From: Rosistilla ulvae
GTDB taxonomy: Bacteria > Planctomycetota > Planctomycetia > Pirellulales > Pirellulaceae
Length of the DNA stretch: 64,000 nucleotides
NCBI RefSeq assembly: GCF_007741475.1
Contig: NZ_CP036261.1
Coordinates: 4,341,798-4,405,797, forward strand
Direction of reading: 5' to 3'
Shown here: positions 14,635 to 31,382 of the stretch, in pieces
How positions within the stretch are numbered: position 1 is the first letter of the stretch
Layout: each line of letters begins with the position of its first letter
Made by a program: the position numbers and the translations under genes
Notes under the pieces: generated by a model
The model's input: only the letters and a program-made list of their open reading frames with translations
Database searches by the model: none
What the model was told of the DNA's origin: nothing

Positions 14635-14800
14635 GGCCGAAGGCCGGTACATGTGGGCCTTCGGTATGTGTCGGCCTCCGGACTGTTTGTTTGTTCGCAC
14701 ACGAGCAACCGGTGGCTCACGCCGCCGGCACTAGATTTGTCGGCCTCCGACCTGTGGCGCGGAGCCAGTGATTGGAGCACTTCAACTAAGCATCCAGTTC

Positions 14801-14877
14801 TAAAAGAGCCGGACAGAAAACTGGTTTCTTTAGAATGCGGTGCCGACCCAACCTGTGGTTTTCTGTTCGCTTCTAAA
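14801..14877. repeat. ~70-bp hairpin repeat, copy B
   Basis: Arms CGGACAGAAAAC (from 14810) and GTTTTCTGTTCG (to 14869) are complementary at 11 of 12 positions. The interior (TTTAGAATGCGGTGCCGA, then CCCAACCTGTGG) matches copy A with several changes, and both copies end with CTTCTAA. Confidence 0.7.
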
Positions 14878-15234
14878 TGTCTGTTGGGAGCGTGGTGCTT
14901 CGCTGGACGTCGGCGCGACGAGACATCCGAGTCTGTGTTGTTGGTAACGCAGAACACGAATATGGCGGAAGAGTCGACGCATACCAATGAGGATGAGTTC
15001 ACGCTTGTCAATCATCTTCAGCAGTCCGCGTAGTACGAACTCGGCATGCTCGATAGATCGGACACCAGCCTATCAATCCTGTCAGTAACAACTCGGTTTG
15101 CAACGCCAAGGCGCCCCCAGAGCTTCCAGACTGTTGAATTGATCAGACCCAAATGGTGAGAGTCATGAGGCACAGAGCGAGCTTGAGTCGCTGAAGTCGA
15201 TCAGGAAATGGGATTCGTCCGTGCGTGGGGTAAA

Positions 15235-16674: not shown

Positions 16675-16846
16675 GGTTTCTCCGGAACTGGCATTTGGGT
16701 ATTCCTCGGTCGGGTACGATCTTGACCGCGGTCGAGGTCGTAGACGCATCCTATGTCAAATGTGCGTCGCTCTTGAATCGATTTTGCGGGCGGATTCGGT
16801 TTCAAACTGGCTCTCCTATTTGTATACAATGCGTTAACGGCATCAT

Positions 16847-18487
16847 TCAAATCTTGCTACTGAGTTCTCGAATCTCGTGATTCAAAATGCGATCGTTTTC
16901 GGAGTAATCGATGGGGACTTCGACCAGGTGGACGCCGGGCGAATTCAGGCAGCGGGACAGCAACGGCAGTAGTGCTTCACTCGACGCGACGCGATGCCCG
17001 TTTGCACCATAGGCTTCGGCGTACTTCACGAAGTCAGGGTTGCCGTAGTCCAGGCCAAAATTTTTCAACCCCATGTTCGTCTGCTTCCATTTGATCATCC
17101 CGTAGGCATCATCGCGGAGAACAAGGACGACGAGATCGAGCTTCAACCGCACCGCCGTTTCCAGTTCTTGTGAATTCATCATGAAGCCACCGTCGCCGCA
17201 GATCGCCATCACTTGCCGATCCGGATGAACCAGTTTGGCCGCCATCGCTGACGGCAGCCCGGCTCCCATCGTTGCCAGGGCGTTGTCGAGCAACACCGTG
17301 TTGGGCGCGGTTGCCTTGTAGTTTCGTGCGAACCAAATCTTATAGATACCGTTATCGAGTGCGATGATTCCGCGTTTTTGTATTGCTTGCCGGACGTCGG
17401 CAACTAGCCGTTGCGGATAGATCGGAAAACGATCATCGTCGGAACCTTGGGCAACGCTGGTCTCACCGGCTGTGCGAACGGTCATGAAGCGAGAGAAATC
17501 CCAGTGCGGCTGCGGCTCTAGCTGCTCCATCAACCGCCAGATGCTATTCGCGATATCGCCGACGACCTCGACTTGCGGAAAGTAGACCGGATCGACAGAG
17601 GCCGACGAGAAGTTGACATGGATGACCTTGACGCCTCCGGCGTGCATGAAGAACGGCGGCTTCTCGACCACGTCATGGCCGACGTTGATGATCAGGTCGG
17701 CCGCCTCGAACGCGCGGTGGACGAAGTCATTCGACGAAAGGGCTGTGTTGCCGAGAAACAACGGGTCTCGCTCGTCAATGACGCCTTTGCCCATCTGAGT
17801 CGTCGCGAAGGGAATACCCAACTTGGCAACCCACTTCCGCAGCATGTTGCATGTCCGTTTGCGGTTGGCTCCGGCCCCCACTAACAACAGGGGCGACTCG
17901 GCAGCACGGATCATCTCTACAGCCGCGTGGATGGATTTGTCTTCAGCGACCGGCCGCCGAACGAGACTGGCGGGGATCGGTTGCTCGTCGACCTGCTCGG
18001 CGGCGATGTCTTCCGGCAATTCGAGATGCACAGCGCCAGGTTTTTCTTCTTGTGCCAGACGCATCGCTTCGCGGACTCGCGATGGGATGTTGGCTCCGCT
18101 GACAAGTTGCCTCGTGTATTTCGTCAACGGACGCATCATGTCGACGATGTCAATGATCTGGAACTGACCTTGCTTACTCGTCTTGACCGGCTTTTGCCCC
18201 GTGATCATTAGCATCGGCATGCCGCCTAGCTGAGCGTATGCGGCGGCCGTTACTAGGTTTGTTGCCCCCGGCCCGAGCGTGGAAAGACAAACGCCCGATT
18301 TGCCCGTCAGGCGTCCATACGTTGCTGCCATGAAACCGGCAGCTTGCTCGTGTCGGGTGAGGATCAGCCGGATATTCGACCGCGACAGTGAATCGAGGAA
18401 ATCGAGGTTCTCTTCGCCTGGAATGCCGAAGACAAATTCGACGCCTTCGTTCTCCAGGGCTTTGACAAATAGATCAGACGCTTTCAT
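16847..18487 (-). CDS. Thiamine-diphosphate enzyme, acetolactate synthase large-subunit type
   Basis: 546 residues. The N-terminal pyrimidine domain carries the catalytic Glu47 (LILTRHEQAAGFMAATYGR) and LSTLGPGATNLVTA. The C-terminal PP domain has GDGGFMMNSQELETAV followed by LRDDAYGMIKWKQ, the thiamine-binding motif with Asp where biosynthetic synthases have Asn, closer to catabolic AlsS-type enzymes. The likely reaction is condensation of two pyruvates to acetolactate, but related enzymes decarboxylate other 2-oxo acids. No regulatory small subunit is adjacent, which also argues against the biosynthetic IlvB role. It starts 29 bp after the glutamate dehydrogenase stop, so the two are probably an operon. 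Confidence 0.82.
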   Translation of the reverse strand: MKASDLFVKALENEGVEFVFGIPGEENLDFLDSLSRSNIRLILTRHEQAAGFMAATYGRLTGKSGVCLSTLGPGATNLVTAAAYAQLGGMPMLMITGQKPVKTSKQGQFQIIDIVDMMRPLTKYTRQLVSGANIPSRVREAMRLAQEEKPGAVHLELPEDIAAEQVDEQPIPASLVRRPVAEDKSIHAAVEMIRAAESPLLLVGAGANRKRTCNMLRKWVAKLGIPFATTQMGKGVIDERDPLFLGNTALSSNDFVHRAFEAADLIINVGHDVVEKPPFFMHAGGVKVIHVNFSSASVDPVYFPQVEVVGDIANSIWRLMEQLEPQPHWDFSRFMTVRTAGETSVAQGSDDDRFPIYPQRLVADVRQAIQKRGIIALDNGIYKIWFARNYKATAPNTVLLDNALATMGAGLPSAMAAKLVHPDRQVMAICGDGGFMMNSQELETAVRLKLDLVVLVLRDDAYGMIKWKQTNMGLKNFGLDYGNPDFVKYAEAYGANGHRVASSEALLPLLSRCLNSPGVHLVEVPIDYSENDRILNHEIRELSSKI

Positions 18488-18516
18488 GGTGATTCCTGTT
18501 TGAGCAGTTCTTCGAT

Positions 18517-19884
18517 TTAGACGACGCCGTAAGCCAGCATGGCGTCGGCGACCTTGATGAACCCTGCAATATTTGCGCCAAGTACATAGTTTACAAATCC
18601 GTCGGTCTGACCATGCTCAACACACTTGTCGTGGATATCACGCATGATGGTCTTCAGCTTCTCGTCGACTTCTTCACGACTCCACGAAAGTCGCAGTGCG
18701 TTTTGGCTTTGCTCTAAACCCGAGACTGCAACACCGCCGGCATTCGCGGCTTTCGACGGAGCGTAAAGAATCCCGGCTCCTAAAAATGCATGAGCGCCCG
18801 CCAGTTCGGTAGGCATGTTGGCTCCCTCGCAGACAGCTTTGACTCCGTTGGCAATCAACGCTTTCGCATCGTCCAGACTGATCTCGTTCTGCGTGGCACA
18901 CGGAAAGGCGACATCGCACGGCACATTCCAAGGACGTTCTTCGGGAAGGAACGTGACGCCCTCGAACTTATCGGCATACTCCGCGATTCGTCCCCGACGC
19001 ACCTCCTTGAGATTTTTGATGAAAGCCAGTTTCTCGGCATCAATGCCCGCTGGATCGTGAATGAAGCCGGATGAATCGGACATGGCGACGACCCTTGCGC
19101 CCAGTTCGGTAGCCTTTTCAGCGGTGTAGATCGCGACGTTTCCAGATCCCGATACCACGCATGTCTTTTCCTTGAGACTGTCATCAATATGGTTGAGCAT
19201 GTTCTCACAAAAGTAGACGCATCCGTAACCGGTTGCCTCGGTCCTGACGAGACTGCCGCCGAAGGTCAGCCCCTTGCCGGTCAAGATACCCGCAAAGCGA
19301 TTTTCAAGTCGTTTGTATTGTCCAAACAGATAGCTGATCTCACGAGCCCCAACGCCGATATCTCCAGCCGGAACGTCCGTGTCTTCGCCAATGTGGCGAT
19401 GGAGTTCAATCATTAGCGAGTGACAGAATCGCATGACTTCGCGATCGCTCTTTCCCTTGGGGTTGAAGTTCGCGCCCCCTTTGGCCCCGCCCATCGGGAG
19501 CCCCGTCAGGCTATTCTTGAAGGTCTGCTCAAAGCCGAGGAACTTCAGGACGCTCAACGTCGCGTCGGGATGGAACCGCATTCCGCCTTTGTACGGGCCG
19601 ATCGAATTGTTGAATTGCACACGCCACGCCCGATTCGCTCGAATGTTGCCTGCGTCGTCTTCCCAAGTGACGCGGAAGATGACGATTCGATCCGGCTCTG
19701 TCATCCGTTCGAGTATCTGAGCATCTTTGTATTTGCGATGTTTTAGCACGAACGGCATGACGGTTTCGACGAACTCCCGCACCGCTTGATGAAACTCCAG
19801 TTCCCCGGGATTCCGACGTTCAAGCCCCTGCATGAAGCATTCGGTATCTGAGCACGTGTCGATCCAAGTGGCTTTGTTGGGCAT
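18517..19884 (-). CDS. gdhA: NADP-type glutamate dehydrogenase
   Basis: 455 residues from the ATG at 19884 (MPNKATWIDTCSD), with a GGAGA about a dozen bases upstream. It shows the hexameric GDH pattern: GPYKGGMRFHP, the catalytic-lysine region LPMGGAKGGANFNPKGKSD, PAGDIGVGAREISYLFGQYKR, and the Rossmann motif VVSGSGNVAIYTAEK. Length and motifs fit the small (~450-residue) GdhA class that aminates 2-oxoglutarate to glutamate with NADPH. It is first in the gdhA, thiamine-diphosphate enzyme, aldehyde dehydrogenase series and is divergent from the HEAT/thioredoxin gene. Confidence 0.93.
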   Translation of the reverse strand: MPNKATWIDTCSDTECFMQGLERRNPGELEFHQAVREFVETVMPFVLKHRKYKDAQILERMTEPDRIVIFRVTWEDDAGNIRANRAWRVQFNNSIGPYKGGMRFHPDATLSVLKFLGFEQTFKNSLTGLPMGGAKGGANFNPKGKSDREVMRFCHSLMIELHRHIGEDTDVPAGDIGVGAREISYLFGQYKRLENRFAGILTGKGLTFGGSLVRTEATGYGCVYFCENMLNHIDDSLKEKTCVVSGSGNVAIYTAEKATELGARVVAMSDSSGFIHDPAGIDAEKLAFIKNLKEVRRGRIAEYADKFEGVTFLPEERPWNVPCDVAFPCATQNEISLDDAKALIANGVKAVCEGANMPTELAGAHAFLGAGILYAPSKAANAGGVAVSGLEQSQNALRLSWSREEVDEKLKTIMRDIHDKCVEHGQTDGFVNYVLGANIAGFIKVADAMLAYGVV

Positions 19885-20676
19885 GGTGTTTCCAATCTCC
19901 GTGGTGATGGCTTGCCGTTTGGTGGACGTGTCTACCGGCCCCAACACTCCGCCGTAATTGACCGCGATGGGGCTCTGTGAAGTTGACGTGGGAAACGCAA
20001 GCTCCTTACAGCAAGATGCTCGGACGCGACTGGAATTCGCGGGAAATCTTAGGCAGACCTGTGTCGAGCGATCGAAAGCCTGTCTGTGCTTCGTGCTTTG
20101 AATCACTCAATTTGTCGCGGGGAATCATGATTTTGACGGAGCCGAATTGTTTGAGCGTCATTGACGCTCTCTCGCTTTCAGTACGGCCGGCGATATGTCA
20201 ATGACTGTATCGGTGCACCGGCTACACCACTTGGTGTTAGAAATCAAAGCTGTCTTGTCCTCTCAGTGGCGACTCCCCCGCTGAGCGGACCAACTTTAGC
20301 TGGGCGCGGTTGAGGTCAAGTTCCTCTAGCTGAGTGGCGTAGCTTTGGTACTGAATGAGCCGTTGACGATTGGCGAGGCGGTGTTGTTGCCTGCTTCTTG
20401 GCAACTGGAACTGCCAGGAAATGCGTCACAGCGGTGCCTGTCGTTGAGCCGTCGTCTGTGAGCACACACACACAGCCAGCAATCCGCTGCAACGTATAAT
20501 CAAGGCCACTCGCGGCAACGACATCTACCTGAGTTCAAGAAGAGGAAGCATTGAGAATGCAAAAAACATTGGGTTCGGCAGTATCGATCGACCGACGCAG
20601 ACACACCACCGTCGGCGGGCTCGACAACGGAGTGAAGCCTGTTTTGGGCAAGCGTGAAAATCGGAAAGATCCAGCA
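19885..20676. other. Divergent intergenic region, nothing recognised
   Basis: About 790 bp between the divergent gdhA and HEAT/thioredoxin genes. It should contain both promoters, but no clear box, riboswitch or repeat was found. A short CA tract (ACACACACACA) lies near 20465. Confidence 0.45.
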
Positions 20677-21822
20677 ATGGTTTCTCACTCGAATTTGTCG
20701 TACGTCGCTTTCATCGTGATCGCATTGTCGACGGGCACTGATGTGGCTGGCCAAACAGCCGCGATCTTCGATCGTGTTAACACACATGAGTTTCAGCCGC
20801 TTAATGAAGATGGATCGTTTACAAATGATCGTGTCTTAGCGAAGAATGGCGTTAGCGACCTCGCGAACGATGATTGGAAGGTCCGCCTGTTGGCAATCCG
20901 TGACTTGACACGTTCGCTGCCCAAACAACTGGATGCCGTCGTAGCGGGGCTGGAGCACAACGATCCGCACGTACGGCAAATTGCGGCAGCAGCATTAGGA
21001 ATCGCGCGTCAAAAGGAGGCTGCCAGTGCGTTACAAAATGTTTTGGAGGCCGACCCAATGGCACTTGTTCGTTCGCAGGCGGCGATGTCGCTAGGCCAAT
21101 TGGAGTCGGTGGAGTCGCTTGAATTGTTACGCCAGGTTTTTGAACGAGACAAATCGCGTGACGTTCGACACCAATCCGAACTAGCGATTGACCAGATCGA
21201 GAAGCGGCTGGGGGCGACAGAGATGCAACTTGCCGCCTTCCGAGCATTGGACGAGGCTTCGTTTAAACAAGTTCAAGTCGGCCAGCCTGCTCCGGATTTC
21301 ACATTAAGTGACAGCGAGGGAAATCCGTGGCAACTGAGTCGTGCTGGCAACGGAAAATGGACAGTGCTGATTTGGATCTTCGCCGATTGGTGTCCCGTTT
21401 GTCACGGAGAGTTTAAAGAATTGATGTCGATGAAAAAGGAGTTTGATGAAGCCAATGCTGTGGTTGCAACGATCGAGTGTCACGATCTCTATCGCTGTCG
21501 ATTGATGGTTGGAAAGGAAAAAGATGCAGACTACTGGTTTTCGAAAGCTTCGTTTCAGCAGAAATATCTGCGATCCGTCTGGTGGCCCCACTTAAGCGAT
21601 CTGGCTGGTGGGGTAGGTGCTCAGTACGGCGTCGACCCGATGTCATTTGCCGTGCACGCCGAGTATGTAAACAGACCGTCCACAATCATCATCGATCCGG
21701 AAGGACGCGTGCGTCTCACCTACTACGGGACATTCTGGGGCGATCGTCCGTCACTGCATGAAACACTAGAGATGATCAAGTCAGAAGAATTTAGCTTTGA
21801 GCATCCCCGACGTCTCAAGTAG
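20677..21822 (+). CDS. Secreted HEAT-repeat protein with thioredoxin/AhpC-TSA domain
   Basis: 381 residues from the ATG at 20677, with GGAAAG upstream. An N-terminal signal segment (LSYVAFIVIALSTGTDVAG) is followed by HEAT-like helical repeats (VRLLAIRDLTRSL; DPHVRQIAAAALGIAR; ALVRSQAAMSLGQLE; RDVRHQSELAIDQIE). A peroxiredoxin-like thioredoxin fold (VGQPAPDFTLSDSEGNPW) comes next, with the CxxC site in FADWCPVCHGEF. The protein is probably exported and acts as a thiol-disulfide or redox protein whose HEAT part binds a partner. An extra pair of cysteines (ECHDLYRC) lies about 30 residues after the active site. The upstream 42 residues of the open frame do not look like protein. Confidence 0.82.
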   Translation: MVSHSNLSYVAFIVIALSTGTDVAGQTAAIFDRVNTHEFQPLNEDGSFTNDRVLAKNGVSDLANDDWKVRLLAIRDLTRSLPKQLDAVVAGLEHNDPHVRQIAAAALGIARQKEAASALQNVLEADPMALVRSQAAMSLGQLESVESLELLRQVFERDKSRDVRHQSELAIDQIEKRLGATEMQLAAFRALDEASFKQVQVGQPAPDFTLSDSEGNPWQLSRAGNGKWTVLIWIFADWCPVCHGEFKELMSMKKEFDEANAVVATIECHDLYRCRLMVGKEKDADYWFSKASFQQKYLRSVWWPHLSDLAGGVGAQYGVDPMSFAVHAEYVNRPSTIIIDPEGRVRLTYYGTFWGDRPSLHETLEMIKSEEFSFEHPRRLK

Positions 21823-21896
21823 GGCGTTTTCGTACGGGTTCGATGTTTCCAACCGACGCACGCAACTCGGGTCAACCACACGTTCGATGAATAAGA

Positions 21897-22229
21897 GTGT
21901 CCAATACGACCGATCGTTTCCCAAAAGTTGCCGCCAGTTCGGTACCGCGGCTGCCAACGGAACAAATATTTGAGGTCGATCGTGCCATGATCGAGGACTA
22001 TGGGATTGAGTTGCTGCAAATGATGGAACACGCAGGCCGCGGTTTGGCCCGACAAGCTTCCACTCGATTCTTGGACGATTCGCTTCACGGCAAGAATGTG
22101 ATTGTTCTCGCAGGCAAAGGCGGTAATGGCGTTGGTGCATTGGTTGCCGCGCGGCGACTCCACTGTTGGGGAGCGAACGATTCCGTATCCTTCCCCTTAT
22201 CCCGCAAGATTCGTTTACCCGTCGTTTAG
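21897..22229 (+). pseudogene. Truncated NAD(P)H-hydrate epimerase (YjeF N-terminal domain)
   Basis: 110 residues from a GTG. IFEVDRAMIEDYGIELLQMMEHAGRGLA and VIVLAGKGGNGVGALVAARRL match the first third of YjeF_N/AIBP epimerases, which repair hydrated NAD(P)H by interconverting its epimers. The family domain is about 220 residues; here the frame leaves the family after CWGAN and stops at 22229. A frame change around 22165-22190 or a deletion is likely. The conserved GGNGGG loop is GGNGVG here. Confidence 0.7.
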
Positions 22230-22377
22230 ACGTGCGAGGCGAAACCCTGTTTCTTTGACCTAACGCAGCGTTTGAAGGAACACGTAAAACTTCGGTTAAA
22301 GTTCCTCTGAGGGAGGCTCGGCGCCTCGCGTACTACTGTCGCAGCGGCTCCTTCTATCCCGTGGCATCGTCGACACG

Positions 22378-25122
22378 TCAGTCGGGAAACGGGGACGCAT
22401 TGGTGAGTTGGGTGATCGCATCGCGAGTTCGAGTTACTAGAGGGTGATCGGAGTATTCTCCGTCGATTGTATCGAGATCAGCCTTCGCGTTTGCGATGGC
22501 GTCTTTCGCCCTTCCAGGATTTCCCCACTGTCGGTACAGCGTTGCTTGGCTTCGGTACAGCATCGCACGCCAACAACGATGTCGAACGCTGTCAGGCCAT
22601 GTTTGAATGAGCCAGGTTTGCAACCGAATCGCCTCGCTGAGCATCGCGTCCGCCTCATCGAACTGATCTTGGCTTCTCGCGATTGCGAAAATCTTGTGCC
22701 GCAGGTGAACTTCAGATGCCTGGAACAAAGCGTTGTTGGGATTTATGGTTCGCAGCTTGCCAAGTTCGTCTAACGCTTCGCGCAGTCGCTGCGAGACTTC
22801 GTGCGTTCGAGCTGGCGAGCGGAGTCCGCGAACGTTTACGTCGGCCAGCGTTGCGACCAATTCGAACCGCACGTTGGTATCGTCCGGCGTTGCGTACAGC
22901 TGGTCGCGTAAGATCGAAACGGCTTCGCGAAAATCACGACGTTTCCCGTTCCCGGCGTAGCGGAACTCGTCAAGAGTTTCGGAGGAACCGCGTGCGGAGT
23001 TGGGGGAATCGAAAGTCTTGACGACTTCCGCTACGGGCCGGGTGGAGCGGGATCTGGCGAGTAGGCTTCTTGCGTGCAGGATATTGATTGTTGCAGATTG
23101 CTGCTGCGAGTCTTTTAAGCTCTGCAAAATCTCGATCGCGCGACTGATGTGCGAGAGATCGGCCGCTCTTTGTTCGACGGTAAGCGATTCGCCACGGCGG
23201 TGTTGTGGCGGTCGATTTCCCAAACTCAGATGTGCCCGAGCGAGTTCGATCCGGCCCGCGATGTTGGAACCGTCCAGTATCGATGCGGCTTCGATAGCTG
23301 ATTCGTAGCACGCGTTTGCCAGCTCACGGCGGAACTCGCCAGCGTGCATCTCGCCGAGGTCGTTGTTCAACCTAGCGAGTCTCAAGTACAAATCATCGTG
23401 GGGAATCGCAGGGTAGCGGAAGTCGTCAAGACTTTCGTCCGTCGGGCTCGCGGGTTGTGGTTGACGAATGTCTTGTTGGTTTGAGGTGCGAGTGGAGGAT
23501 TGTCGAAAGTCTTGACGACTTCCACTACGACGGTCGGGTGTTTGACGAAAGTCTAGACGACTTCCGCTACGGTTGAGCAGGGAGACACTGGCATTTAGCG
23601 TTTCGATGCTGTCGGGCGTTCGACCCAATGCGTGTTGAATACGCGCAAGCTGGATGCTGGCGTCCACCATTTGCAGAATGATGTCGGGGCGAGTCGGCGA
23701 TTGCCGCGACAGTCGTTCATAGATGGGTTGCAGGCGTTCCAAAATCTTCGCTGAAACGGGCGAGGGTTCGAGTCCGACGTTTGGGAGCGAGTCGTCATCG
23801 AACGAATCGTCGATAGCGATACTGGACGAAGCTGGCGTTCCGGACACCACGTCGACAATTCCATCGAGCGATTGTAGCGCAAGGTCGACGGTTTGCTCCG
23901 ATGTTTTCAAAGCGATGACGGAGCGTTGGTTCGCCGCTGATGTGATTGCGTAAGCAATCGTCGAGACGATCGTCGCTGCCAATAGTGCGACCGCAGCGAC
24001 TGTGATCGCGGCCGCCAGCTTCGGATTGCGTCCCGCCCAGCGAACAAGGCGGCCCGCAACGGAGATCTTGCGAGCATGAATCGGTTGATCCGAGAGGAAT
24101 CGCCCGAGATCGTCGCGCAAATCGGCTGCCGACTGATACCTCAGATCGGGATCGACTTGGATCGCCTTGGAGACAATCGTGGCAAGATCGATTGGAACGT
24201 CGGAGCGAATCGCTTGGATCGACTGCAGGCGAGGATTGGTGATGGAACCGATCAGATGTTCGGCGTCGCTCTCCTCAAACGCCGGTCGTCCAGCGAGCAA
24301 TTCGTACAGCGTTAGACCGATCGCGTAGACATCGCCTCGCTGGTCGGAAATTCCTGCGAATCGTTCGGGAGCCATGTAGCGCAGGCTGCCGCTGACGCTG
24401 CGTGAGTTTGTGAGATCGGTTCCGACGTTCTTTGCCAATCCAAAATCGGTGACTTGCGCCGTACCATCTGCTTCGATCAGGATGTTGGCGGGTTTGATGT
24501 CGCGGTGGAGCACACCGCTGGCGTGCGAATAGGCGATCGCATCTGCTACCTGCTGACCGATGCGGGCTGCGTCGGTACAAGACGTCGTACGACCGTTCGC
24601 GATCACCGTGTCGAGCGACTCACCATCGATCAATTGCATGACTAGATAGTGCGAACCGTCGGACTCACCGGTTCCATAAATCGGCACGATGTTGGTGTGA
24701 TGCATCGCGGCGGCGGTTGTCGCTTCGGTGCGAAACCTCGCGAGTGCCTCGTCGTCCAGCAGGCTTTGCTTCGGCAGCACTTTGATGGCAACGGTACGGT
24801 CGAGCGATTGTTGATGGGCTTCAAAGACAATTCCCATTCCGCCGCGACCGATTTCGCGAACGATACGAAAGTCGCCGAGTTGCGAAAGGACGCGGCCCGC
24901 AAGAGTTGCACTTCCGTCTTCGGCGACCTGTTCACCGATCTTTATCCGTTCAATCGAGGCAACGAGCGGAAACATTCGGCGAATCGAATCGCTTAACTCA
25001 GGATGTCGATGCGCGTATTCCTCCACCGTCGGTCGATCACCTTCGCGATAACGGGCGATAAAGTCGCTCGCGAGGACATCGACGATTTCCAAAACGTCGT
25101 CGGTCGTGTCGGATATTTCCAT
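22378..25122 (-). CDS. Membrane-anchored Ser/Thr protein kinase with repeat-encoded inserts
   Basis: 914 residues. Kinase domain at about 85-345: glycine loop IGRGGMGIVF (91-100), Lys114 in VAIKVL, catalytic HRDIKPAN (206-213), DFG (226-228), APE (251-253). A single membrane helix lies at about 369-392, followed by a ~500-residue region likely outside the cytoplasm with helical, TPR-like content. This is the PknB-like architecture common in planctomycetes. Five copies of the 25-bp hairpin repeat lie in the 3' half and are translated in frame: residues 517-570 (SGSRQDFR-, DFRQ- and ESLDDFRY-type peptides) and 696-722 (VAEVVKTF, ETLDEFRY). These peptides look like insertions in the sensor part; the kinase core is untouched. 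It is third in line after the sigma factor and EF-hand genes on the same strand. Confidence 0.9.
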   Translation of the reverse strand: MEISDTTDDVLEIVDVLASDFIARYREGDRPTVEEYAHRHPELSDSIRRMFPLVASIERIKIGEQVAEDGSATLAGRVLSQLGDFRIVREIGRGGMGIVFEAHQQSLDRTVAIKVLPKQSLLDDEALARFRTEATTAAAMHHTNIVPIYGTGESDGSHYLVMQLIDGESLDTVIANGRTTSCTDAARIGQQVADAIAYSHASGVLHRDIKPANILIEADGTAQVTDFGLAKNVGTDLTNSRSVSGSLRYMAPERFAGISDQRGDVYAIGLTLYELLAGRPAFEESDAEHLIGSITNPRLQSIQAIRSDVPIDLATIVSKAIQVDPDLRYQSAADLRDDLGRFLSDQPIHARKISVAGRLVRWAGRNPKLAAAITVAAVALLAATIVSTIAYAITSAANQRSVIALKTSEQTVDLALQSLDGIVDVVSGTPASSSIAIDDSFDDDSLPNVGLEPSPVSAKILERLQPIYERLSRQSPTRPDIILQMVDASIQLARIQHALGRTPDSIETLNASVSLLNRSGSRLDFRQTPDRRSGSRQDFRQSSTRTSNQQDIRQPQPASPTDESLDDFRYPAIPHDDLYLRLARLNNDLGEMHAGEFRRELANACYESAIEAASILDGSNIAGRIELARAHLSLGNRPPQHRRGESLTVEQRAADLSHISRAIEILQSLKDSQQQSATINILHARSLLARSRSTRPVAEVVKTFDSPNSARGSSETLDEFRYAGNGKRRDFREAVSILRDQLYATPDDTNVRFELVATLADVNVRGLRSPARTHEVSQRLREALDELGKLRTINPNNALFQASEVHLRHKIFAIARSQDQFDEADAMLSEAIRLQTWLIQTWPDSVRHRCWRAMLYRSQATLYRQWGNPGRAKDAIANAKADLDTIDGEYSDHPLVTRTRDAITQLTNASPFPD
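22957..23034. repeat. Hairpin repeat pair inside the kinase gene
   Basis: The forward copy 22957-22981 (stem AACTC/GAGTT) faces the reverse copy 23010-23034 (subtype AAGTC/GACTT). Both are read through in frame as kinase residues 696-722. Confidence 0.9.
23413..23570. repeat. Three hairpin repeats inside the kinase gene
   Basis: Copies lie at 23413-23437 (forward), 23504-23528 (reverse, one change in the outer arm) and 23546-23570 (reverse, changed loop). All are the AAGTC/GACTT subtype. They encode part of kinase residues 517-570. Confidence 0.9.
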
Positions 25123-25184
25123 TCAGCGAGTCGCAATGAAGCGTTGCATATCAGTTCTCTAGTACGGTGATCGGAATATCAATC

Positions 25185-25382
25185 GTAGCGGAAGTCGTCA
25201 AGACTTTCGTGGGTGTTACATTTACCGTAGCGGAAGTCGTCAAGACTTTCGCGGCGGATCGTCAAACTCCGAAACTCTTGACGAGTTCCGCTACGAAGAT
25301 TCTGGTTGACGTCGAAACTCTTGACGAGTTCCGCTACCTGGAGGGACGCAAATCTAACGAAACTCTTGATGAGTTCCGCTAC
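25185..25382. repeat. Cluster of five hairpin repeats upstream of the kinase gene
   Basis: Forward copies at 25185 and 25227 (AAGTC/GACTT subtype) are followed by reverse copies at 25270, 25313 and 25358 (AACTC/GAGTT subtype; the last has one loop change). The cluster fills almost the whole 271-bp gap between the EF-hand gene and the kinase gene and would lie in the 5' leader of the kinase message. Confidence 0.92.
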
Positions 25383-25393
25383 GCAAATATTAC

Positions 25394-27307
25394 CTACCTT
25401 CTCCGGCCGCCGGGGAAATGAGTTCGACCATTGACCATGCCGGCCGTTGGATCCTGTTCGAGCCAGATGGTGAATTCTTGCTCAACCGCTTTGCACCAGC
25501 CCTCTTTCTTGTTGCAGGCGAAGTACTGAATCTCCACCTTGATCGGTTTGCCGGCTTCCCAGTTCTGCACGTCGAGCAAGAACTCGCGCGGTTCGGTGTC
25601 CGATTCCACGTTCAGCTTTTTTGCTTCGGCCATCGCTGGTGTCACCGTTACGCCACCGGCGGTGACGCGATATCGCGGCGGTGAAGCCAGGTTGTTCCAT
25701 TCAGCTCCCAGCACCGGATCCTGACGAAAGCCGAGGTACAGTTTTCCGGTGCCGGTCTTCAACAGTTGTTGATCGGCTTCGGGACGCAGCTTGGCGTAGC
25801 GGCTGGATTTGGCAAAGTTTGAAGAAAGCAGATCTTTGACGTTCAATGCTTCTCCACCGGCGGCGACTTTCAAAGGGACGGCGATTCCGTCGACCGACTT
25901 GCGTTCGACCAGCATGTCCGCAGGGGACGTTTTGTGCCGTCCAAACTGTGGCAGATTCAGATCCGCGACCGTTGTGATTTTTGGGGAAGGACCGACCAGT
26001 TTTTCCAACGACTCTCGCAGGCTAGAACCTCGTCCCCACGAATCGCGATGGACAATCTTGCCGTCGCGATCGAAGACGAACTGTGAGTTTGGCGTCATTC
26101 CGAAATGCTGTTTCATCTCGTTGTCCATCGTGTCGGTCAGCCACGGGATCGATGTCTGCAGCAACTCTTTTGCGTGCTCAACCTGAGCGAACCGTTCCTG
26201 AATCGATGTCGGCTGAACGAAGCCCCAGTTCTCAGGATGGGTTAGCGATTGATACAAGAAGTAGAACTGCACTCCTTTGTCAGCGTAATCTGCGGCGACC
26301 GCTTCGATCTCCGGATACGAATTGCGGTACTCGGGACAAGTCAAACAACCGCCCACGATCACTGTGTACTCTGCGTCGAAGATGCTGTTAGCAGCGACCA
26401 GTTCGCGATCCGTATTATACAGCTGTAGAGATTCCGGCAGCGTCGAGCCTACCGTAAACTTCTCTTGGAATTCCGTATCGCGGGGGCGAACTTTGTCGCG
26501 AGGTCGGCCGCCACCGCGAGCTGCCTGCCCGCCACCGCCGCGTTGTCGCGACTCTCGCTGTCCTTGCATTCCGGTCTCTCCTCTGCCTTCGCGAGCTCGA
26601 GCTTGGGTTGGAGCATTTTTTACAGGCTGCCCACCTTCGGGATTGAGTTGGTTGCGACGAAATTGAGCCGCCAGTACGACCAGCTCCTTTTCGTCGAGTG
26701 ATCCGCTCTTGTCTGCGTCGGCGATTGCAAAAGCTTCGAGCATGTGGTCGGGCAATTCGTCCAGTGCGATCGAGCCGTCATTGTTTGCGTCGAGCGTCAT
26801 GATCTGCGCGACGAACGCAGCATCTGCTTGTCCCGGATCGCCACCGCGCCCGCCGCCTCCACCGGGAGGCCCTCCATTTCCGGGACGGCCGCCGCCTCCC
26901 GGACCACGCACGCCAGCTTGACCTCGTCCAACTCCCATTGCGTCACCGCGTCCTCCCCCGCCGCCTCGAGGTCTGCCCGCGGCTCCCCGCTGGCCCATTG
27001 CCGCAGGTCCACCGGGACCTCCGGCGGGGCGAAATTCATCGCCGCCGATCTTCCCGTCCTTGTTTCGATCCAGCTTCAACAGTGAAGCCGCCGCATCCCT
27101 AATTTCCGCTTTCGATAGCTCTCCATCTCTGTTGGTATCGAAGATCGCAACCCATGGGGGCTGCTGACCGCCCTGTTGGCCCCCCATTCCGGCGCCACCC
27201 TGCCCTCGACCGGCTCGCTCCCTTCCCGGTGGCTGAGCGCTTGCCAGCGAATCGCTCAGCAGGAACGCGAAACAAAACAGCGGAACAATTAATCGAAAAC
27301 GTCGCAT
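25394..27307 (-). CDS. Secreted EF-hand protein with thioredoxin-like region
   Basis: 637 residues. A signal peptide (RLIVPLFCFAFLLSDSLASA) is followed by four EF-hand loops: DTNRDGELSKAE (57-68), DRNKDGKIGGDE (80-91), DANNDGSIALDE (173-184) and DADKSGSLDEKE (197-208). Long Gly/Arg/Pro-rich linkers lie between the pairs (about 95-160) and after them (220-275). The second half resembles a thioredoxin-like domain: YTVIVGGCLTCPEY with a CxxC, then a cis-Pro-like NSQFVFDRDGKIVHRD. The C-terminus is a beta-rich segment with two further cysteines (FACNKKEGWC). It is probably periplasmic, calcium-binding and perhaps a redox protein. It lies between the sigma factor and kinase genes on the same strand and has no internal hairpin repeats. 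Confidence 0.82.
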   Translation of the reverse strand: MRRFRLIVPLFCFAFLLSDSLASAQPPGRERAGRGQGGAGMGGQQGGQQPPWVAIFDTNRDGELSKAEIRDAAASLLKLDRNKDGKIGGDEFRPAGGPGGPAAMGQRGAAGRPRGGGGGRGDAMGVGRGQAGVRGPGGGGRPGNGGPPGGGGGRGGDPGQADAAFVAQIMTLDANNDGSIALDELPDHMLEAFAIADADKSGSLDEKELVVLAAQFRRNQLNPEGGQPVKNAPTQARAREGRGETGMQGQRESRQRGGGGQAARGGGRPRDKVRPRDTEFQEKFTVGSTLPESLQLYNTDRELVAANSIFDAEYTVIVGGCLTCPEYRNSYPEIEAVAADYADKGVQFYFLYQSLTHPENWGFVQPTSIQERFAQVEHAKELLQTSIPWLTDTMDNEMKQHFGMTPNSQFVFDRDGKIVHRDSWGRGSSLRESLEKLVGPSPKITTVADLNLPQFGRHKTSPADMLVERKSVDGIAVPLKVAAGGEALNVKDLLSSNFAKSSRYAKLRPEADQQLLKTGTGKLYLGFRQDPVLGAEWNNLASPPRYRVTAGGVTVTPAMAEAKKLNVESDTEPREFLLDVQNWEAGKPIKVEIQYFACNKKEGWCKAVEQEFTIWLEQDPTAGMVNGRTHFPGGRRR

Positions 27308-27410
27308 TGAGCTGGCTCACTATCTGGGGTTTCGGAATGACCTACGGAACTAAACCCCGCCGCCGCGACAGATCTACTGACAATTGAAAAGTTTTTCCGC
27401 CCGCCCCCGC

Positions 27411-27496
27411 GTAGCGGAAGTCGTCAAGACTTTCGTTGGCCACAGTAAAACCTGACAATAAAGAGAGTGGTCGAAACTCTTGACGAGTTCCGCTAC
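27411..27496. repeat. Hairpin repeat pair at the 3' end of the sigma factor gene
   Basis: The forward copy 27411-27435 (AAGTC/GACTT) faces the reverse copy 27472-27496 (AACTC/GAGTT). The sigma factor stop codon (TAG, minus strand 27495-27493) is the TAG of the GTAGCGG arm in the second copy. Confidence 0.92.
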
Positions 27497-28095
27497 GAGA
27501 GCGCTTCCAGGACGACGCGGAGGCGTTCCAACGCTCGCATGTAGCGGATGCTTGCCGCCTTCGGCTTGATGTTCAATTCAATCGCCACTTCCTGATTTGT
27601 TAGCTCTTCAAAATGCCGCAGCGCCAGAACTTCACGGTCGATGTCGTTCATGTTTGCGAGCGCTCGCCGCACTTCGTCGATCAGTTCCCCGCGAACCGCA
27701 GCTTGGCTGGGCGAGGTCATGTGGGCGATGAAACGCTGCGAAAGGCAAAGCGATGTGTTGCCCCACACGTTGTTGCCGGCTGGGGCGGCCTCTCGCGAAG
27801 CGTTTCGCGATTCGGTTCCCAGATGCGTGCGATGGATTTTGCTGAGCGTCTGGCCGGTTACTAGTCGCAGCCACAGGAACAGCGACGGGAAGTCGCCGTC
27901 GATGTAGTGGCGAAGTCGCTTCTCTGCCTCGAGAAAGACTTCTTGCACCACGTCATCGGGATCGACGCGGCCACGAATTTTGTCGCGGAGGCGAAAGTGG
28001 ACGATCTGCCAAATTCGCGGCCGATGCAGAGTGAACAACTCGCCAAACGCGGCGGTGTCGCCATGTTTGAGTCGTTCTTCGAGGTCGTCGGCCAT
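27493..28095 (-). CDS. ECF-type RNA polymerase sigma factor
   Basis: 200 residues. Region 2 shows WQIVHFRLRDKIRGRVDPDDVVQEVFLEA, with the DPDDVVQE promoter-melting/core-binding block typical of planctomycete ECF factors. Region 4 shows IDREVLALRHFEELTNQEVAIELNIKPKAASIRYMRALERLR, a helix-turn-helix that reads the -35 element. The linker is longer than in standard ECF factors. It is collinear with the EF-hand and kinase genes downstream, which suggests the kinase signals through or is controlled by this factor; that is inference. The stop codon lies inside a hairpin repeat. Confidence 0.92.
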   Translation of the reverse strand: MADDLEERLKHGDTAAFGELFTLHRPRIWQIVHFRLRDKIRGRVDPDDVVQEVFLEAEKRLRHYIDGDFPSLFLWLRLVTGQTLSKIHRTHLGTESRNASREAAPAGNNVWGNTSLCLSQRFIAHMTSPSQAAVRGELIDEVRRALANMNDIDREVLALRHFEELTNQEVAIELNIKPKAASIRYMRALERLRVVLEALS

Positions 28096-28162
28096 AAATT
28101 TTTTCAGATAGCCAGTAGATCGTTCGGAGAACGCGGGTTTATGAGTTCAGGAATCAGCAGTT

Positions 28163-28235
28163 GAGGCGGAAGCCGTTGAGACTTCCGAACATGATTCCTG
28201 GATTGAACCACGAAACTCTCGACGAGTTCCGCGAC
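28163..28235. repeat. Degenerate hairpin repeat pair between sigma factor and sulfatase
   Basis: A diverged forward copy at about 28165-28187 (GCGGAAGCCGTTGAGACTTC) faces a reverse copy at 28211-28235 (AACTC/GAGTT subtype, changed loop). It lies in the 171-bp divergent promoter region. Confidence 0.75.
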
Positions 28236-28266
28236 GCCACGCCCATTCTACCAGCGAACAACGACA

Positions 28267-31200
28267 ATGAAACCAATCCTATCGCTCCTTACGCTCCGCA
28301 CATCCGCTCTTCTTATGCTGCCTGCGTTGGCCGGACTGTTGGAATGCAGCACCGCATCGGCGCAGCGCGATCAGGCTGACGCAACGCCGCCGCAAAAGAA
28401 CGTCGTGATCCTGTTAGCCGATGATCTGGGATGGGGCGACGTCGGTTTTCATGGAGGAGTTGCCGAGACGCCCAACATCGATCGACTGGCAAGCGAAGGG
28501 CTGGAGTTGGACCGCTTCTACGCCTACCCAGCCTGCAGTCCAGCTCGGGCCGCGATGCTGACCGGGCGTTTTCCGCATCGTTACGGAATTACCGGACCGG
28601 TTCGTCCCCGGGACGAGGGGCTGCCGATGAGCGAACGATTACTGGTAGCCGACTTCCAGGACGCCGGTTACCAAACCGCATTGGTTGGGAAGTGGCACTT
28701 GAGCCGCTCGACAGACGTGGCGCACAACCCCGCTCGTCGCGGCTTCGACCACTTCTACGGTTTCCTGGATGCTTCGATCGACTACTACAAACACACAAAC
28801 GGACGAGGCCAGATCGACTGGCAGCGAAATGGCCAGGCGGTCGAAGAAGAGGGCTACGCCACCGACCTGCTGACTCGTGAAGCGATCCGGATCATCGAAA
28901 CCCGCCGTAGCGGAAGTCGTCAAGACTTTCGTCCCAGCAACCGGACTGGAAACCGTCAAGACGCTCGACAAGGAACGGAGTCGACCGAAACTCTTGACGA
29001 GTTCCGCTACGGGGGAAAGCCGTTGTGTATGGTGGTTGCCTACAACGCTCCGCACAGTCCATTTCAAGCTCCCGAGCACCTGATTGCCAAGTACCGCGGT
29101 CGACTCGATGAACGCAGTGCGACATATGCCGCGATGATCGAATCGATGGATCAAGGAATCGGGAAGATCATGACCGCCATCGAGAGGCAGGGGATGCGCG
29201 ACGATACGATCATCGTATTTGCATCGGACAACGGCGCGGCGCGGATGGGAACCAACGCTCCGCTGCGTGGACAGAAGCGGCAGGTTTATGACGGAGCGAT
29301 TCGCGTTCCCTGCATCATTCATGCACCCGGCATCGTGAAGCCAGGGACCGTGTCAGATCAGATGATCGCAATCCATGATCTCCTGCCAACCTTGGCCGGC
29401 GCCGTCGGTGTCCAACTCGGCACCGGTAGCGGAAGTCGTCAAGACTTTCGGCGGTCCGATAAAACCGGAACTCTTGACGAGTTCCGCGACAAGCCGCTCG
29501 ACGGCGAAAACCTGTGGCCCAATCTTGTCAGCGGGCGATCCAAACCACGCCAAATCGTGATCGCCGAAGAAGACTTCGCGATCTTTCAAGACAGCTGGAA
29601 ACTGATCCAATCCGCTGCGGGAGTGGAGCTTTACGACATCGTCGCCGATCCTAGCGAACAGCAGAACCTCGCTCAACGCCACAGCAAAATCGTTGCCGAC
29701 TTGTTAGGCGAGCTGACGGAGTTCAAACAACAAGTCGCCGCCGACCAACCTGCAACCCCCGTCGTAGCGGAAGTCGTCAAGAGTTTCGACACACCATCGA
29801 AACTCTCCACGAGTTCCGCTACGGAGAGGAGTGTCGTCGAAGGATCGTCGCTGGCTGGTGTGCAGCTTCAAGGCGATGCGGACTTTGGAATCTTGGGAAA
29901 CCGCCTGACGGAATCGAACGGTAAAGGAATTCGGTTGATGTCGGCGGTCGATCTCAACGGCGACAAGCAGTTGGCCGGTGAAGCTTCCATCGTCAGCAAC
30001 GATATCAAGCCGGCAGACCGCTGGTACCGCTTCGACATTCTCGGCATGGCTCAAGACGGTTTTGCTGTCGACAAAGACAACTTGTATTTGAAGGTCGAGT
30101 TTTTCCAGAAGGGACGCAATGGTTCGTTGGACTTTATCAAGACGCGGGTTTACCCGCAGGTTGTCCAAGAGCGAAAAGACTTTAAAGATGAAGGGACCAA
30201 TGCGAGCCTTGGGCTGGGAACGTGGCGCACCTACGCGATGGATTTCCGGACTCCCTTCGCTGAGATCGATTCGGTCAAGTTGAGCGTCGGATTCACCGAT
30301 GGAACCGGCAAAGGGAAGCAGTCCGAGTTCTGGGTAAACTCGGTCAACCTGCAACCGATTCCAGTACCCGCCGAGTACGAAGCGCCAGCCAACGCTGAAC
30401 GACAATTCCCGCAGCCCGATCCGAATTCGCTTGTGGCACTTGGCGGACGCTGGTACTTCGATTCGCAAGGCGGAGCGAAGCGACTTCCCAAGCAGTTCGA
30501 TTACACCAATGCCGATCAGTTGCTTTACAAATCGGATCGCTTTGAGGCTCCGTTTGCGGGGAACATGTCGTCGTGGCTGCGAGCCGGCTATAAAGATTTT
30601 GAAGGCAACATCGTCGAGAAGGACGAGCCCAAGCCCTACGCCGTTGTCATTTCGGTGACGAAAGATCACATCGTGATGCGAAGTCGCAATCTGCCAAACC
30701 ATCCGACCGCGACCTTCCCCGACAAGTGGCGCATGCTGGACGGGAATCCCTCCTACATCCAAGAGAAGGCGAACACTTGGTACTTGCCTAAGGAACCGAA
30801 GATGGCGTCCGATCCGATCGCGATGGACGACAAGAACGCCAACGGGGCTTTGCCAATGGGCCCCATCGGCGTCGCCACGAATGGAGTGATCTTCTTCAAT
30901 CCGTTTGACCACATTTTCGAGACCGATGCGGTTTGGCGATTGGATCGTTGCTGTGGCCACCCAAGTCCACAGAGTGCGTATCACTATCACAAGTATCCAG
31001 TTTGTGTGAAGACGCCGTGGAGCGACGAAGGCAAGATGCACTCATCGGTGATTGGATTTGCGTTCGACGGCCTGCCTGTCTACGGACCTTATGAAGCCGA
31101 TGGTTTGTTGGCGAAAGACAATCGACAAAACCCACTCAACGATTTCAACTTGCACGAAGACGCAATCCGCGGCCCACACTATCACGTGACGCCTGGGAAA

Positions 31201-31272
31201 TTCCCCCACATCATCGGCGGTTATTGGGGCGAGCTCGATCCAATGAACGGTCGAGGCCGCCGAGCCAGGTAA
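28267..31272 (+). CDS. Secreted sulfatase fused to a YHYH domain, with repeat-encoded inserts
   Basis: 1001 residues. A signal peptide (LLMLPALAGLLECSTASAQ) precedes a type I sulfatase: VVILLADDLGWGDVGFHGG binds calcium, and CSPARAAMLTG carries Cys90, expected to mature to formylglycine. GKWHL and FASDNGA also fit. It should hydrolyse sulfate esters, probably of algal polysaccharides, outside the cytoplasm. A middle beta-rich region (about 525-690) is followed by a C-terminal YHYH domain (YHYHKYPVC, IGFAFDGLPVYGP, GPHYHVT). Six hairpin repeat copies are translated in frame at residues 213-248, 386-408 and 499-519, giving SGSRQDFR, ETLDEFRY and VAEVVKSF peptides inside the sulfatase part, in regions away from the motifs listed. 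Whether the enzyme tolerates them is untested. Confidence 0.9.
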   Translation: MKPILSLLTLRTSALLMLPALAGLLECSTASAQRDQADATPPQKNVVILLADDLGWGDVGFHGGVAETPNIDRLASEGLELDRFYAYPACSPARAAMLTGRFPHRYGITGPVRPRDEGLPMSERLLVADFQDAGYQTALVGKWHLSRSTDVAHNPARRGFDHFYGFLDASIDYYKHTNGRGQIDWQRNGQAVEEEGYATDLLTREAIRIIETRRSGSRQDFRPSNRTGNRQDARQGTESTETLDEFRYGGKPLCMVVAYNAPHSPFQAPEHLIAKYRGRLDERSATYAAMIESMDQGIGKIMTAIERQGMRDDTIIVFASDNGAARMGTNAPLRGQKRQVYDGAIRVPCIIHAPGIVKPGTVSDQMIAIHDLLPTLAGAVGVQLGTGSGSRQDFRRSDKTGTLDEFRDKPLDGENLWPNLVSGRSKPRQIVIAEEDFAIFQDSWKLIQSAAGVELYDIVADPSEQQNLAQRHSKIVADLLGELTEFKQQVAADQPATPVVAEVVKSFDTPSKLSTSSATERSVVEGSSLAGVQLQGDADFGILGNRLTESNGKGIRLMSAVDLNGDKQLAGEASIVSNDIKPADRWYRFDILGMAQDGFAVDKDNLYLKVEFFQKGRNGSLDFIKTRVYPQVVQERKDFKDEGTNASLGLGTWRTYAMDFRTPFAEIDSVKLSVGFTDGTGKGKQSEFWVNSVNLQPIPVPAEYEAPANAERQFPQPDPNSLVALGGRWYFDSQGGAKRLPKQFDYTNADQLLYKSDRFEAPFAGNMSSWLRAGYKDFEGNIVEKDEPKPYAVVISVTKDHIVMRSRNLPNHPTATFPDKWRMLDGNPSYIQEKANTWYLPKEPKMASDPIAMDDKNANGALPMGPIGVATNGVIFFNPFDHIFETDAVWRLDRCCGHPSPQSAYHYHKYPVCVKTPWSDEGKMHSSVIGFAFDGLPVYGPYEADGLLAKDNRQNPLNDFNLHEDAIRGPHYHVTPGKFPHIIGGYWGELDPMNGRGRRAR
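28907..29010. repeat. Hairpin repeat pair 1 inside the sulfatase gene
   Basis: Forward 28907-28931 (AAGTC/GACTT), reverse 28986-29010 (AACTC/GAGTT). Between them a weaker third copy is visible (GGAAACCGTCAAGACGCTCG). The 104 bp are in frame and encode about residues 213-248. Confidence 0.92.
29426..29490. repeat. Hairpin repeat pair 2 inside the sulfatase gene
   Basis: Forward 29426-29450 (AAGTC/GACTT), reverse 29466-29490 (AACTC/GAGTT, with two outer-arm changes). It is in the same reading phase as pair 1 and encodes SGSRQDFR and TLDEFRDK. Confidence 0.92.
29764..29822. repeat. Hairpin repeat pair 3 inside the sulfatase gene
   Basis: The forward copy 29764-29788 is a hybrid (AAGTC on one side, GAGTT on the other); the reverse copy 29798-29822 is AACTC/GAGTT with a changed loop. 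It is read in a different phase from pairs 1 and 2, giving VAEVVKSF and KLSTSSATE. Confidence 0.9.
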
Positions 31273-31284
31273 ATCCGCCCCTTC

Positions 31285-31382
31285 GTAGCGGAACTCGTCA
31301 AGAGTTTCGTTGCCACGGCCCCTTCGTAGCGGAACTCGTCGAGAGTTTCGTTGCGTTCGAAAGTCTTGACGACTTCCGCTAC
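31285..31382. repeat. Three hairpin repeats downstream of the sulfatase gene
   Basis: Forward copies 31285-31309 and 31326-31350 (AACTC/GAGTT) are followed by a reverse copy 31358-31382 (AAGTC/GACTT). They begin 13 bp after the sulfatase stop and would fold in the 3' end of its transcript. The rest of the gap to 31584 shows nothing. Confidence 0.92.

What the first reader, a model, noticed from the sequence alone, without database searches (positions are those of the whole stretch)
22957..31382. REPIN-like hairpin repeat family with covarying stems, 23 copies in 8.5 kb
A 25-bp unit (GTAGCGG arm, then stem AAGTC, loop GTCAA, stem GACTT, then TCG) occurs 23 times between 22957 and 31382 and was not seen elsewhere in the window. 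Two subtypes exist, AAGTC/GACTT and AACTC/GAGTT: the G-C pair is swapped for C-G, so the stem is kept. That is covariation, the mark of selection on structure. There are about 11 copies of each plus one hybrid. In eight of nine close inverted pairs, one copy is (or is nearest to) one subtype and its partner the other, so each arm folds best on itself. This resembles REP/BIME or REPIN pairs, but here the units also sit in genes. No RAYT-type transposase was found in the window.
Basis: partly seen in the sequence, partly recalled or inferred. Interest (0 to 1): 0.87.

Follow-up and report, generated by a model that had tools for sequence, protein, structure and literature searches.

The report
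Paired hairpin repeats in planctomycete genomes
A short hairpin-forming DNA repeat, found in two matched versions that are nearly always used as an opposite pair, has spread through many genomes of one family of planctomycete bacteria and in this window sits inside two genes without breaking them; it looks like a new member of a known class of bacterial repeats.

Summary
Confirmed: 23 copies of GTAGCGGAASTCGTCAAGASTTTCG lie in 8.5 kb (22 at no more than 2 mismatches, one at 6), 11 of each stem subtype plus a hybrid; 22 of the genome's 49 copies are here. The family occurs in 83 of 241 genomes searched, up to 616 copies. It is a GTAG-tagged REP family in head-to-head doublets (REPIN/BIME). Subtype pairing is real: 120 of 130 doublets are opposite, 8 same, 2 broken; direct neighbours share subtype (15 of 15 typed). 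Stem pair 10-20 is Watson-Crick in 457 of 467 copies, 228 expected, but essentially as two old alleles. 'Each arm folds best on itself' fails: the inter-arm hairpin remains the predicted fold in 13 of 13 opposite doublets tested; the swap cuts its longest perfect run from 25 to 9 bp. Copies sit in frame in a kinase and a sulfatase; a relative lacks four of the five inserts. Copies are gained and lost locally. No cognate RAYT was identified. Unlike-paired and intragenic GTAG REPs are already described (PMC3733652): a new member of a known kind.

The parts
22957..22981 (+). REP copy, AACTC/GAGTT subtype; in kinase gene
23010..23034 (-). REP copy, AAGTC/GACTT subtype; head-to-head partner of 22957
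23413..23437 (+). REP copy, AAGTC/GACTT; in kinase gene
23504..23528 (-). REP copy, AAGTC/GACTT; same-subtype pair with 23413
23546..23570 (-). REP copy, AAGTC/GACTT; direct neighbour of 23504
25185..25209 (+). REP copy, AAGTC/GACTT; intergenic group
25227..25251 (+). REP copy, AAGTC/GACTT; intergenic group
25270..25294 (-). REP copy, AACTC/GAGTT; partner of 25227
25313..25337 (-). REP copy, AACTC/GAGTT; direct neighbour
25358..25382 (-). REP copy, AACTC/GAGTT; direct neighbour
27411..27435 (+). REP copy, AAGTC/GACTT; intergenic
27472..27496 (-). REP copy, AACTC/GAGTT; partner of 27411; the matching copy in G002 is cut by an IS
28163..28187 (+). degenerate REP copy (6 mismatches), nearest AAGTC/GACTT
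28211..28235 (-). REP copy, AACTC/GAGTT; partner of 28163
28907..28931 (+). REP copy, AAGTC/GACTT; in frame in sulfatase gene
28986..29010 (-). REP copy, AACTC/GAGTT; partner of 28907
29426..29450 (+). REP copy, AAGTC/GACTT; in frame in sulfatase gene
29466..29490 (-). REP copy, AACTC/GAGTT; partner of 29426
29764..29788 (+). REP copy, hybrid stem (AAGTC/GAGTT, G-G mismatch); in frame in sulfatase gene
29798..29822 (-). REP copy, AACTC/GAGTT; partner of 29764
31285..31309 (+). REP copy, AACTC/GAGTT; just after the sulfatase stop
31326..31350 (+). REP copy, AACTC/GAGTT; direct neighbour at 41 bp
31358..31382 (-). REP copy, AAGTC/GACTT; partner of 31326
22378..25122 (-). Ser/Thr protein kinase gene (914 aa) carrying two in-frame REP insert sites that are absent from the G014 orthologue
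   Evidence: Pfam PF00069; alignment
25394..27307 (-). EF-hand/redoxin-like gene between two REP groups (no copy inside)
27493..28095 (-). sigma-70 family (ECF-like) sigma factor gene beside the repeats
28267..31272 (+). sulfatase + YHYH gene (1001 aa) carrying three in-frame REP pairs; two are cleanly absent from the G014 orthologue

Best explanation
The units are a GTAG-tagged REP family of the planctomycete family to which this genome belongs (named hits: Rubripirellula, Stieleria, Neorhodopirellula and uncultured Pirellulaceae/Planctomycetes). The spreading unit is an oriented head-to-head REP doublet (REPIN/BIME unit), 63-78 bp between the GTAG ends in 84 named doublets found with a pattern limited to spacers of 5-35 nt, 57-116 bp in this window, made as a rule of one AAGTC/GACTT arm and one AACTC/GAGTT arm. 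SHOWN: structure, subtype rule, taxonomic spread, absence from four in-gene sites in a relative, local gain and loss of copies between sister species. INFERRED: the doublets arose by RAYT (TnpA-REP)-type single-strand transposition, in which the GTAG foot plus hairpin is the recognised site; the subtype swap lets each arm keep its own hairpin while the two arms cannot form a perfect 25-bp palindrome (longest perfect run 9 bp), which would spare the doublet from hairpin nucleases and deletion. The dense cluster here is an older local expansion (partly shared with G002), tolerated in genes because the unit leaves four of six reading frames open.
For: GTAG intact in 428 of 467 distinct copies, loop GTCAA or GCCAA in 419. 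Copies in 83 of 241 genomes, 24 of 68 genera, reversed control 0. 130 distinct head-to-head doublets from 118 named contig stretches: 120 opposite, 8 same, 2 broken stem; all 120 opposite ones have a longest inter-arm run of 9 bp, all 8 same ones 25. In 15 of 15 organisms of the first 80 loci opposite doublets are the majority, 8 of them with a single doublet. In an unselected 0.8 Mb of G191: of 7 close head-to-head pairs 6 opposite and 1 untyped; direct neighbours 6 of 6 same. In two genomes the spacer is conserved: about 19 nt in one MAG, 14 nt in R. obstinata, read in the direction fixed by the subtypes. One doublet in G000 and G001 is an alternating array of 8 REPs in G002. G014 orthologues lack inserts s1, s2, k1, k2 (net +102, +63, +144, +78 nt). 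Extra units in G002 inside the sulfatase are spaced 36, 39, 45, 45, 33 nt (all multiples of 3), after the stop 41, 41, 41.
Against: No cognate RAYT shown: none of 37 fetched Y1_Tnp loci (of 45 hits in 7 genomes) has the repeat within the flanks held (1.5 kb at most) at up to 6 mismatches, although the four own-genome loci examined have other inverted hairpin repeats beside or around the gene. All 5 PF01797 loci of G191 (597 copies) and all 8 of G014 (406 copies) lack it in the flanks held. The only tight association, a 225-227 aa RAYT relative with a doublet 26 bp past its stop in sister species G123/G134, is weak: the doublet density makes chance plausible (own estimate), its closest relatives in five other genomes lack the repeat, and its Tyr motif reads F in all seven members read (by motif position, not by alignment). 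No clean recent insertion was caught: the one empty site (G002 against G000/G001) keeps GTAGCGGAAA and can be a deletion scar at GGAA as well as a target. Spacers are not conserved in every genome (ACE_PLA12; window). The nuclease argument was not tested.
Confidence: 0.85

Rival explanations
1. Non-mobile local minisatellite: the cluster grew only by tandem duplication and gene conversion within this region and is not a transposing unit.
For: 22 of 49 genomic copies are in 8.5 kb; gain and loss between G000, G001 and G002 is local; direct neighbours share subtype.
Against: Copies are dispersed by the hundred in relatives (up to 616), and doublets of the same architecture lie on many different contigs; tandem duplication alone does not make dispersed head-to-head doublets of unlike arms.
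Confidence: 0.08
2. The opposite-subtype pairing is only descent: the founder doublet happened to have two differing arms and all others are copies, with no selection for unlike arms.
For: The two alleles are shared across genera, so the number of independent changes is small; in two genomes spacer and subtype order are linked.
Against: 8 same-subtype doublets exist and have perfectly matching 25-bp arms, so conversion seems possible yet rare; 4 of these 8 have spacers of 25 nt or more against 10 of 120 opposite ones, but 3 of those 4 come from one MAG; two copies in G014 carry a third pairing state, T-A, and each still faces a differing partner. This is thin evidence.
Confidence: 0.45
3. RNA-level element: the hairpins act as transcript stabilisers or terminators and are kept for that.
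For: G-T at stem pair 7-23 in 179 of 467 copies would pair as G-U in RNA; three copies lie just after the sulfatase stop.
Against: On the other strand the same pair is C-A; 11 of 22 copies here are inside ORFs, 6 in sense and 5 in antisense orientation; the base after the hairpin is mostly G (328 of 467), not a T-run.
Confidence: 0.1

Closest known systems
GTAG-tagged REP families (Di Nocera et al. 2013, PMC3733652; abstract, sections 5 and 14 and passages read)
   Same: GTAG foot, stems mostly 6-9 bp, short loop, subfamilies with alternative complementary stem bases, G-T pairs, head-to-head dimers, dimers of unlike members, groups reiterated in tandem, some copies in genes, presence in the PVC group including R. 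baltica
   Different: Loop GYCAA and stem CGRAASTC; whether it equals one of the R. baltica families of their Figure 1 could not be checked (figures and supplements not readable here)
REPIN of Pseudomonas fluorescens SBW25 (Bertels and Rainey 2011, PMC3116915; passages read)
   Same: two inverted REPs plus spacer as the spreading unit, tandem clusters of near-identical units
   Different: there the organisation is described as symmetrical; here the arms differ by one swapped stem pair; no RAYT partner found here
E. coli BIME of y and z REPs (PMC8266576; passages read)
   Same: mosaics of two unlike REPs (y-z1, y-z2), GTAG foot
   Different: y, z1 and z2 differ in length (35, 29, 37 nt) and share a bulge; here the arms have equal length and differ by a single compensated pair
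Rickettsia palindromic elements (as described in PMC3733652 passages)
   Same: in-frame inserts in genes that likely encode functional proteins
   Different: CGTC-tagged, not GTAG

Membership tests
GTAG REP family | GTAG (or GTRG) at the 5' foot of a short palindrome | tested here: met
   428 of 467 distinct copies with intact GTAG directly before the stem
GTAG REP family | high copy number, dispersed | tested here: met
   49 copies in own genome; up to 616 in relatives
GTAG REP family | mostly extragenic | tested here: met
   30 of 43 copies outside simple ORF calls that cover about 0.9 of 0.8 Mb of G191; in the window, however, 11 of 22 are inside ORFs
REPIN / BIME | two REPs in inverted (head-to-head) orientation with a spacer as the unit | tested here: met
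   9 pairs in the window, one with the degenerate copy 28163; 130 doublets; 7 close head-to-head pairs, 6 direct, no tail-to-tail in unselected G191 DNA
REPIN / BIME | arrays of alternating units | tested here: met
   G002 C1:2468539-2468904, 8 REPs alternating
REPtron (RAYT with its own REPs) | a Y1/HUH RAYT gene flanked by the same repeat in the own genome | tested here: not met
   7 Y1_Tnp loci, none with the repeat in 1.5 kb flanks
REPtron (RAYT with its own REPs) | same, in relatives | tested here: inconclusive
   only the G123/G134 orthologous pair has it directly beside the gene, with Phe at the Tyr motif; not all hits were examined (47 of 60, 30 of 38 plus 2)
RAYT-mobilised element | cleavage of the single-stranded GTAG hairpin by a RAYT | not testable with these tools
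   needs biochemistry

The most novel reading that the evidence does not exclude
The two subtypes are a selected device: a single compensated base-pair swap lets a REPIN keep two working hairpins yet never form a perfect long palindrome, so its near-universal use (120 of 130 doublets, at least 15 organisms) reflects purifying selection by hairpin nucleases, which would answer the open question why REP dimers are so often made of unlike members.
Probability: 0.35. Interest if true: 0.6.

Novelty: new member of a known kind. Interest (0 to 1): 0.42.

Why it matters
Di Nocera et al. write that the preference of REP dimers for unlike partners has no obvious explanation and suggest that it may protect them from enzymatic clearance, naming SbcCD (PMC3733652, section 14, read). 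Here the unlike partners differ by exactly one swapped stem pair, in 120 of 130 doublets from at least 15 organisms, with a few same-subtype doublets as natural controls. That makes the idea directly testable with two-base changes. The locus also shows doublets in frame in a sulfatase and a kinase, and extra units there in steps that are multiples of three.

Tried and rejected
Cognate RAYT: PF01797 searches of the own genome, six relatives and eight high-copy genomes; flanks scanned. Not every hit was examined: 7 of 7, 32 of 38, 47 of 60, 30 of the matches. The G123/G134 candidate looked good at first and was downgraded (closest relatives without the repeat, Phe for Tyr, high doublet density). 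Two further G134 Y1 loci have a decayed pair about 310 bp (L258) and about 2.2 kb (L252) away; by my own estimate, one doublet per 25 kb, that is about what chance gives.

Clean empty sites: 14 loci were tested by joined 100-nt flanks; six of the 14 sites were then aligned: one ambiguous empty site, two with shortened or decayed copies, one with the same pair in both genomes, two with another element nested in a REP. The other eight were not aligned. The sulfatase site 3 is not a clean gain (147 against 138 nt).

'Each arm folds best on itself' was tested by DNA-parameter folding of 17 doublets (13 opposite, 1 hybrid, 3 same; 8 of the window's 9) and not upheld. Promoter, terminator and RNA-family searches were not run.

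Scripts that failed: one search stopped on an error after part of its output and was redone; one search printed nothing and was replaced; one search printed its counts for G191 and the 80 loci, then stopped before the window count. In one search my motif finder found no protein in 31 of 43 loci, so the Phe statement rests on 7 loci (L266-L272) against Tyr at the motif in L287, L290, L022 and L023, without an alignment.
Full report
Observation. The 25-bp unit occurs 23 times in 22957-31382 (22 at up to 2 mismatches to the nearer subtype, one at 6), with 11 copies of each stem subtype and one hybrid. It is absent from the rest of the window apart from a 7-mismatch hit. In the whole genome (one contig, 7,475,804 bases) there are 49 copies at up to 3 mismatches, 22 of them here; the reversed pattern gives none.

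Spread. The relaxed pattern at up to 1 mismatch occurs in 83 of 241 genomes of the family and 24 of 68 genera, reversed control 0 in the rows shown. The two species of the same genus have 17 and 58 copies at up to 3 mismatches.

Architecture. Doublets are oriented. In one MAG the spacer is about 19 nt and close to GTCGTTTAGGCGATGCAGC from the AACTC arm to the AAGTC arm, and its complement when the order is reversed; R. obstinata often has a 14-nt spacer of its own; in others (ACE_PLA12, this window) spacers differ. Over all 118 stretches, 130 distinct doublets: 120 opposite, 8 same, 2 with a broken stem. By organism, in the first 80 loci, 15 of 15 have a majority of opposite doublets; 8 of the 15 have only one doublet and one MAG gives 40 of the 84. 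The pattern of that scan asks for near-consensus arms and a spacer of 5-35 nt but leaves the subtype bases free. In an unselected 0.8 Mb of G191, with up to 4 mismatches outside the variable columns, 43 copies: 7 close head-to-head pairs (6 opposite, 1 with an untyped arm), 6 direct neighbours (6 same subtype), no tail-to-tail; reversed control 0. In the 80 loci: head-to-head 87 opposite, 8 same, 2 untyped; direct 9 same, 1 untyped; tail-to-tail 1 opposite; reversed control 1 against 208 copies.

Covariation. In 467 distinct copies at up to 3 mismatches, pair 10-20 is G-C 239, C-G 215, T-A 3, and 10 are not Watson-Crick; 228 Watson-Crick would be expected if the sides were independent. This is strong as a constraint but is mainly two alleles shared across genera, so it stands for few events. 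Pair 7-23 is A-T 270, G-T 179, C-T 9, G-C 7, others 2: not covariation. The other stem pairs hardly vary.

Folding. Making the arms alike lowers the energy by a further 7.8 kcal/mol in 12 of the 13 (6.7 in the other). The exact effect of the swap is that the perfect 25-bp inter-arm match becomes runs of 9, 9 and 5.

Genes. Pfam: kinase PF00069, EF-hand and redoxin, sigma-70 regions, sulfatase plus YHYH. Copies are read in frame, as RSGSRQDFR, VAEVVK(S/T)F, E(T/S)LD(E/D)FRY or KLSTSSAT. The G014 orthologues lack sulfatase inserts 1 and 2 and both kinase inserts (net 102, 63, 144 and 78 nt); insert 3 lies in a linker that cannot be aligned cleanly. The G002 sulfatase has the same three sites with extra units at 36, 39, 45, 45 and 33 nt, all multiples of three, while after the stop codon the steps are 41 nt (two of the units after the stop have 3 and 5 mismatches). 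In G191 the family is mainly extragenic (30 of 43 copies outside simple ORF calls).

Dynamics. At one locus G000 and G001 have one doublet and G002 an alternating array of eight REPs. G002 C1:6501631-6501744 (three REPs) is absent in G000 and G001, which show GTAGCGGAAA at the join; this is either a GTAG target or a deletion at GGAA. At another site G002 has four REPs, G001 one plus a remnant and G000 a remnant; at a third G001 has lost most of a pair that G000 and G002 keep.

Transposase. Seven Y1_Tnp hits in the own genome, none in the window. None of 37 fetched loci (of 45 hits in seven genomes) has the repeat in its flanks, while the four own-genome loci examined have other inverted hairpin repeats beside or around the gene. 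In eight high-copy genomes 47 of 60 hits were examined, and the two G014 hits left over; only the orthologous G123/G134 RAYT relative has a doublet directly after its stop (26 bp). A family-wide search with that protein finds relatives in 163 of 241 genomes, none close in the own genome (best E 1.0e-7); 28 further relatives have no copy in the flanks held; and its tyrosine motif is FVESHP or FIESHP in all seven members read. I do not count it as the cognate enzyme.

Prior knowledge. GTAG REP families, their subfamilies with alternative complementary stem bases, dimers of unlike members, intragenic copies and occurrence in Planctomycetes are in PMC3733652 (abstract, sections 5 and 14, passages). 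REPIN definition: PMC3116915 (passages). REP recognition by TnpA-REP: PMC8266576 (passages). Distribution of Y1 proteins, with a class found mainly in Planctomycetes, Acidobacteria and Proteobacteria: PMC6006769 (passages). ISs targeting REPs, including an IS4-family member: PMC1525189 (passages). Literature searches. I did not find this sequence named in what I read; the R. baltica families of Figure 1 could not be seen.

Verdict. Real, family-wide, and of a known kind. The specific value is the single compensated swap as a clean natural experiment on why REP dimers are so often made of unlike members.

Noticed in passing
window 60918-62460 (ORF 60997-62442); ends in G000, G001, G002: An IS4/Tn5-like insertion sequence (ends CTGTYGATTACCCACAAGTC; 27 ends in G000, 34 in G002, 4 in G001 at up to 2 mismatches) sits, in 24 of 27 distinct end contexts read (of 65 ends), at GAGGTNACGAG or its complement (one end with a one-base variant), the apex of a second GTAG-tagged repeat (GTAGTGGACGAGGTNACGAGTCC); 11-bp target duplications are seen, also in the window. 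REP-targeting by an IS4-family element is known (PMC1525189).
   Followed up: partly
L096 8420-10113 (G002), compare window 12370-27496: One copy of that IS abuts the REP of the present family at CTCTTGACGAG; on its other side follows the match to window 9755-12370, so about 15 kb of the window (including the kinase and EF-hand genes) is missing at this place in G002; a deletion between IS copies is likely.
   Followed up: partly
L339 about 1976-2088 (G000 C1:794.98-795.09 kb) and L379 about 1351-1465 (G002 C1:3132.85-3132.96 kb): Another palindromic element of about 110 nt with an end CTGTTGATTTAAT is nested inside the hairpin of a REP of this family at two different sites; its end resembles that of the IS above.
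   Followed up: no
L246, L247 (G134, G123): A RAYT relative beside a UPF0301/YqgE-like gene (recalled name) has Phe where the tyrosine of the Y motif is expected, suggesting a catalytically altered, domesticated protein.
   Followed up: partly
L017-L020 (own genome): Four RAYT-like genes each have a different family of inverted hairpin repeats beside or around them, 28 and 42 inverted pairs within 3.3 kb in two of them.
   Followed up: no
G014 C2:41089-42096: A direct array of ten copies of this REP at a period of about 109 bp, all one subtype.
   Followed up: no
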